DNA from: an uncultured Sphingomonas sp.
GTDB lineage: Bacteria > Pseudomonadota > Alphaproteobacteria > Sphingomonadales > Sphingomonadaceae
Direction: 5' to 3'
Assembly: GCA_913777325.1 (NCBI GenBank)
Contig: CAJYSA010000116.1
Span: 1 to 32,432 of the forward strand
Length of the DNA stretch: 32,432 nt
Shown: positions 27,246 to 32,369 of the stretch, in pieces
Numbering within the stretch: position 1 is the stretch's first letter
Layout: the number at the start of each line of letters is the position of its first letter
Translations under genes and position numbers: made by a program
The notes under the pieces: model-generated
The model's database searches: none
What the model saw: the letters and a program-made list of their open reading frames with translations, nothing else
What the model was told of the DNA's origin: nothing

Positions 27246-27815
27246 TCAGCGGCAGACGACCTGACCGCGATCGATCCGCTGGCCGAGTAGGGCGCCACCG
27301 CCGGCGCCGATCAGCGTGCCGAGCAGCCGCGAGCCGCCGCCCGCGATGACGTTGCCCAGCGCGCCGCCAGCCAGGCCGCCGACGATCAACCCGGTCGTGC
27401 CGTCGTTGCGGCGGCAGTAGTAGCGCCCGTCGTTACCGCGATAGACCCGGTCGTTACGCGTCAGTGCGCGCTGACGATAATAGCGTCCGTCGCGATAATA
27501 TTGGTCGGCGTAGTAGCGGCGCTGGCCGGGCTCCAGCCGATTATAGTCCCACCGACGCGACTGGCGCCAATCGCGCACGCGATCGTTGCGGTCGCGCCGG
27601 GCATCGCGGATGTTGTCGTTATATTCGCGACGGGCATTCCGGACGTCACGGCGGGAATCGGCGTCGCGAAGATCCTCGCGATATTCGCGGCGCGCATCGC
27701 GCACGTCCTCGCGATATTCCCGATTGGCCTCGCGCGGGCGCTGCGCGGCGGCGGGTGTCGCCGACATCGACGTAAAGGCAGTCGCGGCGATCATGGTCGC
27801 CATCAGGATACGCAT
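27246..27815 (-). CDS. Secreted/outer-membrane glycine-zipper protein with charged 11-residue repeats
   Basis: The 189-residue protein has a signal peptide (MRILMATMIAATAFTS, cleavage near AAAQ at residue 25). A highly charged helical segment with an 11-residue period follows (REYREDVRDAR-like units, residues about 32-83), then a Tyr-rich linker with RYYADQYYRDGRYYRQ. The C-terminal glycine-zipper 2TM domain is at residues about 145-180 (GLIVGGLAGGALGNVIAGGG). Such domains often occur in envelope lipoprotein-like or pore proteins; function unknown. The ATG at 27815 has AAGGAG 9 nt before it; an ATG at 27820 is followed at once by a stop. The C-terminus is clearly related to the gene at 28454-28759. 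Confidence 0.85.
   Translation of the reverse strand: MRILMATMIAATAFTSMSATPAAAQRPREANREYREDVRDARREYREDLRDADSRRDVRNARREYNDNIRDARRDRNDRVRDWRQSRRWDYNRLEPGQRRYYADQYYRDGRYYRQRALTRNDRVYRGNDGRYYCRRNDGTTGLIVGGLAGGALGNVIAGGGSRLLGTLIGAGGGALLGQRIDRGQVVCR
27564..27722 (-). repeat. Charged 11-residue repeat region in the glycine-zipper gene
   Basis: Units like REYREDVRDAR, REYREDLRDAD, REYNDNIRDAR and RDRNDRVRDWR follow each other at an 11-residue (33-nt) period with one shorter unit, giving a long charged helix. Matching DNA words such as TCGCGATATTC recur on the plus strand. Confidence 0.8.
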
Positions 27816-27914
27816 CACATGTCTCCTTCGTTGAAGATTCGATGAAAACTCAACGACGAGGCCACAATCCTGGTTGCGTGAACCGCAAACTACCTGCTGT
27901 TCACTTCCGGGACA

Positions 27915-28453: not shown

Positions 28454-28759
28454 TCAACGGCACTGACGCTTGCCGCTGCGCTCGATCTCGCGACCGGCCA
28501 GCGCGCCGCCGACACCGCCCAGCACGGTGCCCAGCGTCCGGTCGCCGCGCGTGTCGATCGTGCGGCCCAGCAGGCCGCCGGCCACCGCGCCGACCACCAG
28601 GCCGGTGGTGCCATCAGGCTTGCGGCAGCGCAGGCGGCCGTCATTGCCGCGCCATTCGCGATACTTGTGGCGGCGCTGCGCATCGGCATCGACCGTGGTG
28701 GCGACCAGCGTCGGCGCAACCATCGCCATCGCGCCGAAAGCAAGCATGAGCTTACGCAT
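28454..28759 (-). CDS. Small secreted glycine-zipper protein (paralogue of 27246-27815)
   Basis: The 101-residue protein has a signal peptide (MRKLMLAFGAMAMVAPTLV, cleavage near DADA at residue 27). A short basic stretch and then the segment WRGNDGRLRCRKPDGTTGLV follow. It ends with a glycine-zipper domain (GAVAGGLLGRTI and LGGVGGALAGREI) and a Cys-Arg end. The segment GNDGR-x2-CR and the end RxxVCR/KRQCR are shared with the gene at 27246-27815, but the 11-residue repeats are missing. GGGAG lies just before the ATG. Function unknown; probably an envelope protein. Confidence 0.85.
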   Translation of the reverse strand: MRKLMLAFGAMAMVAPTLVATTVDADAQRRHKYREWRGNDGRLRCRKPDGTTGLVVGAVAGGLLGRTIDTRGDRTLGTVLGGVGGALAGREIERSGKRQCR

Positions 28760-28848: not shown

Positions 28849-29436
28849 TCATGGGACAGCATCGCCGCCGTCGTCGATCAGCCGGTAGCCACGTCCTCGA
28901 TCCGTGAGCAAAATGGCCCTGGAATCGCCGTGGTGAAGCGCGCCGCGCAGCCGCGAGACGTGCACGGCCAGCACGTTGGTGCCCGGGAGAAACGGCAGGC
29001 CCAGCAACTCGCGACACAGGTCGACGTGGCGGACCGTGCGCCCCGCGTGGCGGGCCAGCAGTTCGAGCAACGCATATTCGCGCGGCAGCAGGTCGAGCGC
29101 ACGACCGGCGCGCGTCGCGGTGCGCGTGAGCCGATCGATGCGCAGCGATCCCACCGTCAGCATCGCCGGAGGCGCCAGCAACCGCCGCGCGCGCAGCGAC
29201 ACCAGGGCATCGGATCCGCACGCCGCATCGTCCGCGCCCGCGAGCAGCGCGGCATATTCCTCCGCCGCGTCGCGCGCCACCGCCAGCACACGCGCCGCCG
29301 GGCAGCAGCGCGCGTCGGCCAGCGCCAGCGCCGACACGATCACCACCCCCGCGTGCGCATCCTCGCTCAGTGGCAAGCCCAGCGCGCGAAGCGCCGCGCG
29401 CAAACCCGGTCGATCGATGAGGACGCGCACCGCCAT
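28849..29436 (-). CDS. OmpR-like winged-helix regulator with a degenerate receiver domain
   Basis: This 195-residue DNA-binding protein has an N-terminal receiver-like half (residues about 1-88) and a C-terminal winged helix (about 92-190). The winged helix is clear: LDLLPREYALLELLARHAG, then a segment with NVLAVHVSRLRGAL and the wing TDRGRGYRL. In the receiver half the strand that should carry the phospho-accepting Asp reads GVVIVSAL, and the conserved Lys region reads DDAACGSDAL, so both key residues appear to be missing. It probably acts without phosphorylation. It is the last gene of the minus-strand operon, 22 nt after the cupin/HEAT gene, and so is the likely regulator of the peptide system. 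Confidence 0.82.
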   Translation of the reverse strand: MAVRVLIDRPGLRAALRALGLPLSEDAHAGVVIVSALALADARCCPAARVLAVARDAAEEYAALLAGADDAACGSDALVSLRARRLLAPPAMLTVGSLRIDRLTRTATRAGRALDLLPREYALLELLARHAGRTVRHVDLCRELLGLPFLPGTNVLAVHVSRLRGALHHGDSRAILLTDRGRGYRLIDDGGDAVP

Positions 29437-29458
29437 CGCAGCGCGGATGCTGACCGGC

Positions 29459-30382
29459 TCAGCAGCCCGAAACGATCGGCGCGTCCGAAATGGCGCCGCT
29501 TGCGGCTACTGCGGCCAGCGCATGACGCGCGACGTGCCTGACCAGCGGACTGGCGTCGTCCAGCGCCCGCTCGGCAAGCGGGTGCATCGCGTCGAACGGC
29601 AGCGCGCCGCCCGCCAGTGCGGTCAATGCCGTAGCGCGCATCCGGGGGTGCGGATGGCGGATCGCGAGATCGGCGGCGAGCGCACGGCCTGCGTCGCCGC
29701 CCAGCCGCGTCGCCAGCGTCACCAATGCCTCCGATCCGGTGGTGGTCATCGCCTGTGCCACGATGTCGCGCGCGGTGTCGAAGCGATATTGCGTTCGCCA
29801 TGCCTGCGCCGGGGTCGCGCCCAGGATGTTGAGCGACACCGAAAAGCGATCGGGCGGCAATTGCACATGCACGTCGCGGTGCGCGCGGTACAGCATCAAC
29901 CGACCGGGTTCGAGCCGCGCGCGTCGATCGAACACCAGCCGCGCCGGATCGCCGGGCTGCGCATCCTGCGCGCCGTCGAACAGATAATAGTCGCTCCAAT
30001 AGCCCGGCCCGGTATAGCCGACCGTCAGGAACGAGAAGTTATGATCGTGCGGCAGGTCGTAGAAGAAAGGCGCGGTGCCCCCCGCCTTCACGACCGCATC
30101 GTGACGTGCGGGCCAGAACGCCGCCCGTACGGCGTACCGGCGCGACGGGGGGCCGAGCATCATGACCTGCGCGCCATAGCCGCTGTCACGCTGACCGGAG
30201 AAGCGCTGTTCCAGCTCGGCGATGGCGAGATCGGCGAGGAAGCGGCGATTGCGCCCGAGCCGCGCGAGCCAGGGTCCAATGGCCGCGAACGCATCCTCGT
30301 CGCGGGCGTCCCACTTCTCATGCTCCAGCGCCTCGATCAGTTCGTCGAGCGTGATCGCCGCGCCGTGGCCGGGTTCGATCAC
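29459..30382 (-). CDS. Uncharacterised cupin-like/HEAT-like protein B of the peptide operon
   Basis: I do not recognise a named family. The 307-residue soluble protein has an N-terminal helical part (residues about 1-70), then a beta-rich core with cupin-like metal ligands. His112 and His114 are in FYDLPHDHNFSFLTVGYTGPG and His168 and His172 are in LYRAHRDVHVQLPPDRFSVSL. Residues about 205-295 form HEAT-like helices (RHPHPRMRATALTALAGG). Such a core could be an Fe(II)- or metal-dependent oxygenase or a sensor; that is inference. The GTG at 30382 overlaps the previous stop (GTGA); another GTG lies at 30391. No signal peptide. It ends in SGC. The architecture mirrors protein A, suggesting a duplication. 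Confidence 0.72.
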   Translation of the reverse strand: MIEPGHGAAITLDELIEALEHEKWDARDEDAFAAIGPWLARLGRNRRFLADLAIAELEQRFSGQRDSGYGAQVMMLGPPSRRYAVRAAFWPARHDAVVKAGGTAPFFYDLPHDHNFSFLTVGYTGPGYWSDYYLFDGAQDAQPGDPARLVFDRRARLEPGRLMLYRAHRDVHVQLPPDRFSVSLNILGATPAQAWRTQYRFDTARDIVAQAMTTTGSEALVTLATRLGGDAGRALAADLAIRHPHPRMRATALTALAGGALPFDAMHPLAERALDDASPLVRHVARHALAAVAASGAISDAPIVSGC

Positions 30383-31293
30383 GCGCGGCACAGGCGATCC
30401 TCCACCATCGGCAGCGTGGCCTGCGCCAGCGCGCGCACCTCGGCATGTGGATCGTCACGCGCCAACTCCCGCAGGCGGGGCAGCGTGGCGGGTGCGTCGA
30501 GCGCCAGCCACTCGCGCATCGCGGTCCAGCGCAGGTGGTAGGCCGGCGCGCGGGTGGCGGCGGCGAAGCACGCGCCGGCATCGCGACGCCGCTCGGTCCG
30601 CAGCAGCGTGAGCAGCAGGCGCGTGCGCGATTCATCCTGGTCGGCGGTGGCGGTGCGCAACAATGCGCCGGTCGCGCGGTCGTATTCGCGCACCATGGCC
30701 GTGGCGTGGGTGGCGAAGGTGACCGCGACGACCTCGCCGCCGCTCCCCTCCAGCAAGTGAGCGTGACGTCGCCCGTCGAGCCGGACCACATCGCCGTCCT
30801 GCAGCGCCTGTGCGGGTAAGGGGCGGAGCGGCGCGGTGTCGGACGGTCGCGGATCGGCCTGCCAGCGCCGAAGCCGCGCGCCGTGCGCGACATGATAGCG
30901 TGCGACCAGCAACCGGCCCGAGGCGACCAGCGTCGCGTGCGCGGGCGCGGCGGCAAGCGCGGCGCCGTCATAGACGGTCGCGCCCAGCGTCCCGGCGGGA
31001 AGGTCGAGCAACTGCACCGTCGTACGCAGCGCGTCGCGCGTGACGCGGAGCGGCGGATCGAACCACGGATCGTCGGCCAGTGCGCGCATCAGCGGGGCGA
31101 GCAGCGCCGCGATCCACGTCGCGTCACCCAGCAACCCCGCCGCCGCGTCGCCGATCGCATCGACGTCGGCGGGGTTGAGGCCGGCGAAGGTATCGCGGAT
31201 GCGCGCGATCGCCGCGCCCTCCTGCCATGCGCGGGTCGTCACGCGCGCGCGCCGCTCGGCGGCATCCCATTCCGCCGCCGAGGGCAGGGTCAT
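30379..31293 (-). CDS. Uncharacterised cupin-like/HEAT-like protein A of the peptide operon
   Basis: This 304-residue soluble protein has no family I can name. Residues about 1-95 look helical (DAIGDAAAGLLGDATWIAAL). Residues about 105-200 look like a cupin-type barrel, with ARYHVAHGARLRRWQ and the segment DGDVVRLDGRRHAHLLEGSG (His177, His179). Residues 215-300 look like HEAT-type helices (RWTAMREWLALDAPATLPRL, DDPHAEVRALAQATLP). The ATG at 31293 overlaps the stop of the 45-residue peptide gene (ATGA), so the two are translated together. It shares its layout with protein B. Possible roles are peptide modification or sensing, both inferred from context. Confidence 0.7.
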   Translation of the reverse strand: MTLPSAAEWDAAERRARVTTRAWQEGAAIARIRDTFAGLNPADVDAIGDAAAGLLGDATWIAALLAPLMRALADDPWFDPPLRVTRDALRTTVQLLDLPAGTLGATVYDGAALAAAPAHATLVASGRLLVARYHVAHGARLRRWQADPRPSDTAPLRPLPAQALQDGDVVRLDGRRHAHLLEGSGGEVVAVTFATHATAMVREYDRATGALLRTATADQDESRTRLLLTLLRTERRRDAGACFAAATRAPAYHLRWTAMREWLALDAPATLPRLRELARDDPHAEVRALAQATLPMVEDRLCRA

Positions 31294-31427
31294 TTCTGCT
31301 TGGTCATGATGACGATCGCGGTGATGTATTCGCACGTATGGTCCGCCACCTGCTCCAGCGCGCGGATCGCGCCGGTATTGGCGACCGGCGTTTCCAGGTC
31401 GGCGATCTCGTCGATGTCGATCGGCAT
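31290..31427 (-). CDS. 45-residue peptide gene heading the cupin/HEAT operon (candidate precursor peptide)
   Basis: The peptide has an acidic N-terminal half (MPIDIDEIADLETP), a middle VANTGAIRALEQVADH and a C-terminal HTCEYITAIVIMTKQK with a single Cys at residue 32. It has no signal peptide and no domain I know. Support for translation is strong: AAGGGGA stands 6 nt before the ATG at 31427, and the stop overlaps the next ATG by 4 nt. Acidic leader plus hydrophobic core with one Cys and a basic end resemble ribosomally made precursor peptides, but no cleavage or modification motif is proven. It could instead be a small chaperone- or regulator-type subunit of the proteins that follow. Confidence 0.6.
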   Translation of the reverse strand: MPIDIDEIADLETPVANTGAIRALEQVADHTCEYITAIVIMTKQK

Positions 31428-31492
31428 GCGGCGTCCCCTTGCATCACTGCCGCTTGTCTTCGACCGGGGTGGGGGTGCGGCGTTAGTTAAAA

Positions 31493-31536: not shown

Positions 31537-31989
31537 ATGGAATGGGATCCGCGCGCGACGACGCGCTACATGCTGGAAACCCCTGCGCTTGCCGGCCACG
31601 GCGGACGCCTCGGGCAGCGTTATCACGCGCATGGCGACGACTGGATCGAGGTTGCGCAGCCATGGAACGAGGAACTGATCGGCGACGAGGCGCGAGGCGT
31701 GATCGCGTCCGGGCCGATCATCGCGCTGATGGACGTGGCGACCAGCCTGGCGGTGTGGCACCGGCTGCGTGCTTTCGCGGCACATGCCACGCTCGATCTG
31801 CGGATCGACTATCTGCGCCCGGCACGACCGCGATGCACGGTGGTCGGGCGGGGGGAATGCCTGCGTATCACGCGCTCGATCGCGTTCACGCGCGGGATCG
31901 CGCACGATGGCGATCCCGACGATCCGGTGGCGCATGTCGCGGCGACCTTCATGTCGACCGGCGGCCATTATCCGAAGGGGGCGCGATGA
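31537..31989 (+). CDS. PaaI-type hotdog thioesterase
   Basis: Hotdog-fold thioesterases hydrolyse acyl-CoA thioesters. The 150-residue protein has the family core GVIASGPIIALMDVATSLAV with the catalytic-site acidic residue (Asp in ALMDVA), then DLRIDYLRPARP and the last strand HVAATFMSTGG. The ATG at 31537 has GAGG 10 nt before it. The next thioesterase gene overlaps it by 4 nt (ATGA), so they form a pair and may act as a heteromer. No CoA ligase or ring-cleavage gene is in view to suggest the substrate. Confidence 0.85.
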   Translation: MEWDPRATTRYMLETPALAGHGGRLGQRYHAHGDDWIEVAQPWNEELIGDEARGVIASGPIIALMDVATSLAVWHRLRAFAAHATLDLRIDYLRPARPRCTVVGRGECLRITRSIAFTRGIAHDGDPDDPVAHVAATFMSTGGHYPKGAR

Positions 31990-32369
31990 CGCTGCCGCCC
32001 TATGCGCGCCTGCTGGGCGTCACGCTCGAGCTGGTCGACGGCATGCCCGAGATCGTGATGCCGTTCGGGCAGCATGTCGTCGGGCGCCCCGGGTTCCTGC
32101 AGGGTGGGGCGATCGCCGGGCTGCTGGAGGTCGCGGCGGTCGCGGCGCTGCGCCATGCGCTGGCCGGCGAGGGGGCGGGGATCAAGCAGATCAACGGCAC
32201 CGTCGAGTTCATGCGGGGCGGACGCGACCATGTGACGCGCGCGGGGGGCGAGATCGTGCGGCTGGGCGCGCGCGTCGCGACCGTTGCCACCACCGCCTGG
32301 CAAGACGATGGCGCGCGCCCGATCGCCACCGCGCGGATGAACTATCTGATCGAACGTGCCGGCGGGTGA
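31986..32369 (+). CDS. PaaI-type hotdog thioesterase, second copy
   Basis: This 127-residue protein has the hotdog pattern GFLQGGAIAGLLEVAAVAAL with Glu in place of the Asp seen in the first copy, followed by INGTVEFMRGGRD and a final strand of TARMNYLIE. Start ATG 31986 overlaps the stop of the first copy, stop TGA overlaps the next GTG. The two copies share fold but are diverged. Active-site differences suggest different substrates or one regulatory subunit. Confidence 0.83.
   Translation: MTLPPYARLLGVTLELVDGMPEIVMPFGQHVVGRPGFLQGGAIAGLLEVAAVAALRHALAGEGAGIKQINGTVEFMRGGRDHVTRAGGEIVRLGARVATVATTAWQDDGARPIATARMNYLIERAGG

What the first reader, a model, noticed from the sequence alone, without database searches (positions are those of the whole stretch)
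28849..31427. Compact operon: 45-residue peptide, two cupin-like/HEAT-like proteins and an atypical winged-helix regulator
Seen: four minus-strand genes, the first three linked by 4-nt stop/start overlaps (ATGA at 31293, GTGA at 30382). The first gene encodes a 45-residue peptide with a strong AAGGGGA ribosome-binding site. The next two proteins share the layout helical N-terminus, beta core with His pairs, C-terminal HEAT-like helices. The last gene is a DNA-binding protein. Inference: this is the layout of a peptide plus modification or sensing enzymes plus a dedicated regulator, and I do not recognise it as a described RiPP or signalling class. The peptide could be a precursor that the metal-binding proteins oxidise or bind.
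Basis: partly seen in the sequence, partly recalled or inferred. Interest (0 to 1): 0.87.

Follow-up and report, generated by a model that had tools for sequence, protein, structure and literature searches.

The report
Peptide gene with paired dioxygenase-fold proteins
A tiny conserved peptide gene travels with two related proteins, one of which looks like an iron enzyme of the thiol-dioxygenase type, which suggests an undescribed way by which bacteria make a modified peptide.

Summary
The operon is real. Its core is peptide + P2 + P3. A cross-validated profile finds the peptide at the expected place in 80 of the 80 loci fetched by P3; the only two off-target hits are second peptides of duplicated modules. 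P3 is modelled confidently (pLDDT 93.7) as a thiol-dioxygenase-type cupin with an invariant three-histidine site, but the usual Ser-His-Tyr triad is changed. P2 has the same fold without conserved metal ligands. Peptides have a conserved N-half and a hydrophobic, often Val/Ile-rich stretch in the C-half. Three of 80 loci carry two peptide-P2-P3 modules followed by an ABC exporter; an Alteromonas plasmid copy lies beside HlyD/MacB-type genes. Most likely reading: an undescribed RiPP-like system in which P3 modifies the peptide and P2 presents it. Against: among close relatives the peptide is under purifying selection in both halves; a same-strand ABC exporter is seen in only 3 of 80 loci; proteases were not searched systematically. 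The regulator is a swappable add-on (70 of 80 loci). The chemistry, and whether any modification occurs, are untested.

The parts
31290..31427 (-). 45-aa peptide gene (stop included); N-half with motif IDI..I..L.T.VA..GAIR, hydrophobic stretch EYITAIVIM in the C-half
   Evidence: ORF and RBS; homologous peptide in 80 of 80 GTDB loci; single match in the own genome; pN/pS 0.23 to 0.55 among relatives depending on divergence
31434..31440 (-). AAGGGGA ribosome-binding site of the peptide gene
   Evidence: read from sequence
30379..31293 (-). P2: 304-aa protein of cysteine-dioxygenase-type cupin fold without conserved metal ligands, with C-terminal HEAT-like helices
   Evidence: model pLDDT 94.4; Foldseek best hits cysteine dioxygenase and mercaptosuccinate dioxygenase, E about 1e-5; no conserved barrel His in the 54-row alignment; C-terminal half homologous to P3
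29459..30391 (-). P3: 310-aa three-His cupin of thiol-dioxygenase fold with C-terminal HEAT-like helices; GTG start at 30391
   Evidence: model pLDDT 93.7; Foldseek best hit P. aeruginosa thiol dioxygenase 4tlf, E 4e-8, TM 0.41 by query and 0.61 by target; invariant H115, H117, H175
30041..30049 (-). codons of H115-D116-H117 of P3; the two His are presumed metal ligands
   Evidence: both His in 60 of 60 rows and 17 of 17 diverse rows; aligned with the HDH of CDO_I proteins
29867..29869 (-). codon of H175 of P3, third presumed metal ligand
   Evidence: 60 of 60 rows, 17 of 17 diverse rows; aligned with GDLH of a CDO_I protein
29828..29830 (-). codon of N188 of P3, in the place of the His of the thiol-dioxygenase Ser-His-Tyr triad
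   Evidence: 60 of 60 rows, 16 of 17 diverse rows; placed by the hhalign alignment
28849..29436 (-). OmpR-type winged-helix regulator with degenerate receiver-like N-terminal part
   Evidence: Trans_reg_C E 7e-16; relative downstream of P3 in 70 of 80 loci

Best explanation
The operon makes a ribosomal peptide that is bound and chemically modified by a dedicated protein pair. Shown: the peptide gene is a constant partner of P2 and P3 in the loci examined in Sphingomonadaceae; P3 has the fold and three-His site of thiol dioxygenases but not their Ser-His-Tyr triad; P2 is a relative without conserved metal ligands. Inferred: P2 and P3 act as a pair, P2 (with the N-half motif of the peptide) giving recognition and P3, with bound iron or another metal, carrying out an oxidation or similar reaction on the hydrophobic stretch of the C-half. 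In the double-module clusters the product is then exported by the ABC transporter encoded next to it; in the window an exporter and a protease would have to come from elsewhere in the genome. The OmpR-type regulator, which seems to have lost the phosphorylation site, sets expression. The common reaction need not be thiol oxidation, since only 21 of 76 peptides have a Cys.
For: Peptide at the expected place in 80 of 80 loci, cross-validated; further peptides of the same build by eye at distant loci L135-L139 and L157-L161. In 199 related genomes P3 is clear in 34 and the peptide profile hits 28 of these; in the other six a peptide is seen by eye. Of the two peptide hits without P3, one (G075) lies at a contig end with P2 following and one is weak (E 0.005). 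Three-His site invariant; thiol-dioxygenase fold. Three of 80 loci hold two peptide-P2-P3 modules, each peptide next to its own pair, then an ABC transporter; for L154 Pfam confirms it (PF00664+PF00005), it overlaps P3b by 4 nt, and a MacB-type permease lies further on. The Alteromonas plasmid copy has two small ORFs before P2, one of them type iii-like, with HlyD, ABC ATPase and MacB-type permease upstream and an ABC pair (by eye) downstream. Type iii peptides have a conserved Cys in 13 of 13 rows, after a double glycine in 12 of 13.
Against: Purifying selection in both halves among close pairs: pN/pS 0.26 in the N-half and 0.21 in the C-half for 62 pairs at identity 0.8 or more, 0.53 and 0.57 for all 517 pairs at 0.5 or more (pairs not independent), unlike a strongly diversifying precursor. 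No same-strand ABC transporter in 77 of 80 loci (pattern search for ABC ATPases only); proteases not searched systematically; no RRE-type Pfam or NCBIfam hit in P2 or P3. No shared modifiable residue across peptide types. In the Vibrio plasmid copy no peptide of this build was seen before P2. L134 has a candidate without a hydrophobic tail. Foldseek TM-scores are moderate. No modified form is reported in the papers searched.
Confidence: 0.58

Rival explanations
1. The peptide is a permanent small subunit or regulator of a P2-P3 enzyme that acts on a small molecule; it is not modified. Its hydrophobic stretch would add a strand to, or cover, the cupin barrel.
For: Purifying selection in both halves of the peptide among close pairs; same-strand ABC transporter in only 3 of 80 loci; one peptide per P2/P3 pair also in duplicated modules; P3 has a small-molecule dioxygenase fold.
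Against: The tail is rewritten between types and distant loci while staying hydrophobic; transporters adjoin the double-module and Alteromonas copies; double-glycine motif in type iii.
Confidence: 0.25
2. The set is a sensing circuit: the metal protein P3 oxidises or binds the peptide according to oxygen or metal state and the peptide signals to the adjacent regulator.
For: Regulator with degenerate receiver part after P3 in 70 of 80 loci; some thiol dioxygenases act as oxygen sensors on N-terminal Cys of proteins (ADO, plant cysteine oxidases; abstract starts seen in the listing).
Against: The regulator is absent in 10 of 80 loci, with an ECF sigma gene upstream in 7 of them; only 21 of 76 peptides have any Cys and in the aligned rows it is internal.
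Confidence: 0.12
3. The peptide is a membrane-active toxin or bacteriocin-like peptide used unmodified, and P2/P3 are for immunity or handling.
For: Most hydrophobic 12-mer in the C-half in 76 of 76 peptides; transporters in some clusters.
Against: An invariant three-His site has no evident role in immunity; the hydrophobic stretch of type i peptides is short, about a dozen residues by eye; only a weak HEAT match in the defence library.
Confidence: 0.04

Closest known systems
Thiol dioxygenases (cysteine dioxygenase, 3-mercaptopropionate dioxygenase; Pfam CDO_I PF05995)
   Same: Cupin fold; HxH...H three-His site in matching places.
   Different: Ser-His-Tyr triad replaced by Ser-Asn-Leu (Met, Val or Ile at the third place in 10 of 60 rows); extra N-terminal and C-terminal helices; no Pfam CDO_I hit; paired with a twin lacking metal ligands and with a peptide gene; most peptides lack Cys.
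RiPP biosynthetic gene clusters in general
   Same: Short peptide gene first in the operon, dedicated paired proteins, in some loci ABC or MacB-type transporter genes, in type iii a double glycine.
   Different: No recognised RiPP enzyme class and no RRE hit, no clear hypervariable core within a type, modification not shown.
Crocagin pathway (CgnA, CgnB, CgnC, CgnE; PMC10070186, abstract and 12 passages seen)
   Same: Two homologous peptide-handling proteins, one with metal and one without, beside a small precursor and a predicted dioxygenase.
   Different: CgnB and CgnE resemble M29 aminopeptidases, a different fold; here the metal-bearing twin itself has the oxygenase fold.
PqqA / mycofactocin-type pathways with a conserved precursor (recalled, from no call)
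   Same: Precursor conserved rather than diversified.
   Different: Their partner enzymes (radical SAM proteins, recalled) are not among the four operon genes.

Membership tests
Thiol dioxygenase (CDO/3MDO) family | cupin fold | tested here: met
   Foldseek E 4e-8 to 4tlf and many CDO entries, TM by target about 0.6
Thiol dioxygenase (CDO/3MDO) family | three-His metal site | tested here: met
   H115, H117, H175 in 60 of 60 and 17 of 17 rows, aligned with CDO_I His; metal binding itself not tested
Thiol dioxygenase (CDO/3MDO) family | Ser-His-Tyr active-site triad (named for MDO in the abstract start of PMC10966181) | tested here: not met
   S186-N188-L190; S in 59, N in 60, L in 50 of 60 rows
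Thiol dioxygenase (CDO/3MDO) family | sequence membership (PF05995) | tested here: not met
   no CDO_I match in P3 up to E 1 or in the 60 members up to E 0.1; profile comparison with four CDO_I proteins weak (probability 37%, E 3.5e-4)
Thiol dioxygenase (CDO/3MDO) family | thiol substrate | tested here: inconclusive
   Cys in 21 of 76 associated peptides; a small thiol substrate cannot be excluded
RiPP biosynthetic system | ribosomal precursor peptide gene next to dedicated enzymes | tested here: met
   peptide gene next to P2-P3 in 80 of 80 loci; that it is a precursor is inferred
RiPP biosynthetic system | post-translational modification of the peptide | not testable with these tools
   needs mass spectrometry
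RiPP biosynthetic system | leader and core with a cleavage site | tested here: inconclusive
   conserved N-half motif; double glycine only in type iii; no clear step in constraint between halves among close pairs
RiPP biosynthetic system | co-located exporter or protease | tested here: inconclusive
   same-strand ABC transporter in 3 of 80 loci; HlyD/MacB genes in the Alteromonas copy; none recognised among the window genes examined near the operon; proteases not searched except C39, one gene elsewhere in the own genome
RiPP biosynthetic system | RRE domain (not universal) | tested here: not met
   no such Pfam or NCBIfam hit in P2 or P3 up to E 1; structure-level RREs not excluded
OmpR-type response regulator | Trans_reg_C DNA-binding domain | tested here: met
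   E 7e-16
OmpR-type response regulator | phosphorylatable receiver Asp | tested here: not met
   Ser in the window; D in 3 of 54 rows at that column, column placed by eye

The most novel reading that the evidence does not exclude
An undescribed class of ribosomal peptide natural product in which a thiol-dioxygenase-fold three-His metalloenzyme, teamed with a twin without metal ligands, modifies non-thiol residues (C-H oxidation or similar) in a Val/Ile-rich peptide stretch, spread across Sphingomonadaceae and found on a marine gammaproteobacterial plasmid.
Probability: 0.35. Interest if true: 0.88.

Novelty: new variant of a known kind. Interest (0 to 1): 0.72.

Why it matters
If P3 modifies the peptide, this would be a RiPP-like class built on an enzyme fold that the searches made here (open-licence library, listings only) do not link to ribosomal peptides. 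It would extend three-His cupin chemistry from small thiols and N-terminal Cys to internal peptide residues. The system is common (217 GTDB stretches encode a relative of P3), compact (three genes) and directly testable by co-expression. It also gives a search handle, the P2-P3 pair, for short precursor genes that gene finders may miss.

Tried and rejected
Known domain filing: Pfam, NCBIfam, PADLOC and PHROGs gave nothing for the peptide or P2 beyond weak HEAT or chance hits; the GXGXG and glutamate-synthase matches of the peptide (E 0.023 and 0.003, far below cut-off) are taken as chance. PDB by sequence gave HEAT-repeat and chance hits only; the fold search was needed. Crocagin CgnB/CgnE: considered because of the metal/no-metal twin pair, rejected on fold. 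Defence reading: only a weak HEAT-ARM hit. Phage origin: no tblastn match among 50,697 phage records. Chance ORF: rejected and by pN/pS below 1. Prevalence: one search gave 37 of 199 genomes; three hits (G034, G058, G112, E 3.5e-4 to 7e-4) are absent from the profile search, and similar weak P3 matches in four genomes without the operon fall inside a neighbouring hydratase-like gene; two short weak hits (G083, G110) are also dropped. I therefore count 34 of 199. The ORF filter did not show the peptide in nine loci; it was seen there. GC-based gene calls gave shadow genes after the ABC transporter in L154-L156; I could not place a HlyD gene there.

Selection test, told in full: pooled over pairs that are not independent. 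Identity 0.8 or more: N-half 0.26, C-half 0.21. 0.7 or more: 0.34, 0.30. 0.6 or more: 0.43, 0.44. All 517 pairs at 0.5 or more: 0.53, 0.57.

Literature: (listing; PMC10070186 then seen as abstract and 12 of 16 passages); two searches returned no paper; seen as listings with abstract starts (one search returned one paper, on sulfonamide antibiotics). No listed title or abstract start describes this system; the library holds open-licence papers only and no supplement was read.
Full report
WHAT IS THERE. The window belongs to a genome close to Sphingomonas (the nearest named relatives of P3 are Sphingomonas). On the minus strand lie a 45-aa peptide gene (31290-31427) with AAGGGGA six bases before the ATG, P2 (30379-31293), P3 (29459-30391) and an OmpR-type winged-helix gene (28849-29436). 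Peptide stop and P2 start overlap as ATGA.

THE PEPTIDE IS A CONSTANT PART. A scan of GTDB species genomes with the P3 alignment matched 259 stretches, 217 of which encode a relative; the best 80 were fetched, so the set leans to close relatives. A small ORF before P2 was seen by eye in all 80. As a test, profiles built from the peptides of half of the loci (38 or 36 peptides) were run over all six frames of the other half: 40 of 40 and 40 of 40 loci were hit at the expected place (E 0.01 or better), and 2 further segments of 17,248 in all were hit. Both are the second peptide of a duplicated module (L101 E 0.006, L102 E 2e-4). Training and test loci are related, so this measures co-occurrence, not independent origins. 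In 199 related genomes, the own one included, P3 is clear in 34 (36 matches less two short weak ones), in one genus of 31 in that set. The peptide profile hits 28 of those 34; in the other six (G020, G027, G038, G070, G077, G086) a peptide of similar build is seen by eye before P2. Of the two peptide hits without P3, G075 lies within 0.9 kb of a contig end with P2 after it and G043 is weak (E 0.005). The peptide has one match in the own genome.

ANATOMY OF THE PEPTIDE. Type i (most Sphingomonas, including the window): IDI..I..L.T.VA..GA.R..E...D, then a hydrophobic stretch; type ii (Sphingobium): QLAI(D/E)DIADL...(S/A)L.G...D...(D/E)IS(L/V)MDVVIA; type iii (Sphingosinicella, Parasphingopyxis, some Sphingomonas): L.T.V...G.....EVGG.VC(L/I)(G/A)(I/V) (in that listing the script's rule put L107 under iii, but it is type ii, leaving 13 type iii rows, all with the Cys, 12 with the double glycine). 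Loci further off keep only the build, an N-half often with a DL or EDL motif and a hydrophobic tail such as ELGIVITIAVVIL or GVFGVIVVAVVIFL; L134 is an exception without such a tail. In 76 peptides (window, L111 and 74 of the 80 loci) the most hydrophobic 12-mer lies in the C-half in 76 of 76; the mean hydropathy of the halves differs only modestly (0.47 v 0.83); 21 of 76 contain Cys. pN/pS is 0.23 for 62 pairs at identity 0.8 or more and 0.43 for 216 pairs at 0.6 or more, alike in both halves; for all 517 pairs at 0.5 or more it is 0.53 (N) and 0.57 (C). In the window's three more distant pairs the C-half has about twice the nonsynonymous difference per site. So the peptide is translated and constrained, and a hypervariable core is not clear within a type.

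P3 AND P2. P3 is modelled with pLDDT 93.7. Best solved folds are P. aeruginosa thiol dioxygenase (4tlf, E 4e-8, TM 0.41 by query, 0.61 by target), mercaptosuccinate, 3-mercaptopropionate and cysteine dioxygenases. H115, H117 and H175 are invariant in 60 rows and in 17 diverse rows including Alteromonas, Vibrio and three loci from other families. Profile comparison with four CDO_I proteins aligns HDH with HDH, RDVH with GDLH and S-L-N-I-L with S-I-H-V-Y (E 3.5e-4, probability 37%, so supportive rather than proof). The Ser-His-Tyr triad is therefore changed: S in 59, N in 60 and L in 50 of 60 rows, N in 16 of 17 diverse rows. P2 is modelled with pLDDT 94.4, has the same fold by Foldseek (best E about 1e-5), is homologous to P3 in its C-terminal half (hhalign E 1.1e-5, probability 82%) and has no conserved barrel His. 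The Vibrio and G689 copies are shorter (225-243 aa) and end before the C-terminal helices, so the cupin pair is the core.

SURROUNDINGS. A relative of the winged-helix gene lies after P3 in 70 of 80 loci; the ten without it all have type iii peptides, and an ECF sigma gene lies upstream on the same strand in 7 of these 10 and was not found in the 70. Its N-terminal part looks like a receiver that has lost the phospho-acceptor Asp (column placed by eye). Three of 80 loci (S. trueperi L108/L154, S. gei L102/L155, Sphingomonas sp. DG1-23 L101/L156) hold sigma - membrane protein - peptide A - P2 - P3 - HTH - peptide B - P2b - P3b - ABC transporter. For L154, Pfam confirms the sigma factor, the transporter and a MacB-type permease, while the HTH gene is only a weak MarR match below cut-off. 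P3b and the transporter overlap by 4 nt in L154. In L155 and L156 P3b was masked by a shadow gene call but is marked by profile matches (G101, G111). Other ABC ATPase patterns (L087, L088, L094) are on the opposite strand. In Sphingobium-type loci an efflux set (TolC-, HlyD- and MFS-like by eye) lies on the same strand beyond the regulator, behind an opposite-strand TetR-like gene (clusters of up to 10 loci); I do not count it. The Alteromonas stellipolaris plasmid copy has two small ORFs before P2, one type iii-like, HlyD/ABC/MacB genes upstream and an ABC pair downstream by eye. The Vibrio plasmid copy has no such peptide before P2 but a 59-aa ORF overlapping the end of P3. In 12 Sphingomonas genomes without P3 (12 chosen from those lacking it) the thioesterase pair that flanks the window operon is kept in 12 of 12, and in 11 of 12 a hydratase-like gene (named by eye) lies next to it. 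The operon is thus an accessory at that place; whether by gain or loss was not tested.

MECHANISM. The simplest reading of the steady co-occurrence, one peptide per P2/P3 pair in double modules, and adjoining transporters is an enzyme-substrate relation: P2 and the peptide N-half for recognition, P3 (three-His site) for chemistry on the hydrophobic stretch. Shown: genes, co-occurrence, predicted folds, invariant residues, selection. Inferred: complex formation, metal and its identity, reaction, processing, export. Since most peptides lack Cys, plain thiol oxidation of the peptide cannot be the common reaction. The main rival, a permanent small subunit, fits the purifying selection better and is not excluded.

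NOVELTY. No title or abstract start in the listings describes it, and searches returned no paper (open-licence library only). P3 is not a member of the thiol dioxygenases as tested (triad not met, no family hit), and RiPP membership hangs on an unseen modification. I file it as a new variant of a known kind: a candidate RiPP-like class with an unusual enzyme pair.

Noticed in passing
L112 10650-10829 (Vibrio sp. ED002 plasmid): A 59-aa ORF overlaps the end of the shortened P3 copy and has a Gly/Cys-containing stretch; it may be the peptide partner there, downstream instead of upstream.
   Followed up: no
L076 (RPSH01000001.1): Record titled Bacillus sp. 2B10 carries a Sphingomonas-type copy of the operon; the record is probably mislabelled or contaminated.
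   Followed up: no
window 27246-27818 and 28454-28759, minus strand: Two neighbouring genes end in similar glycine-zipper-like segments; the second has a Pfam Glycine zipper 2TM hit, the first was judged by eye only.
   Followed up: partly
window 31537-32369, plus strand: A pair of overlapping hotdog-fold thioesterase genes flanks the operon divergently; a homologue of the second was found in 57 of the 82 loci compared and both are kept in 12 of 12 genomes lacking the operon.
   Followed up: partly
window 28976-30541, plus strand: A 521-aa open frame runs antisense through the regulator, P3 and part of P2; in this GC-rich genome it is most likely a shadow ORF.
   Followed up: no
L137 and L161: Divergent peptide-P2-P3 copies lie near genes that by eye look like an LptF/LptG-type permease and a sensor protein, a different neighbourhood from the main group.
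   Followed up: no
L089 and other Sphingobium-type loci, 2.3-6.5 kb after the P3 start: A TolC-, HlyD- and MFS-like efflux set (by eye) lies on the same strand beyond the regulator, behind an opposite-strand TetR-like gene.
   Followed up: partly
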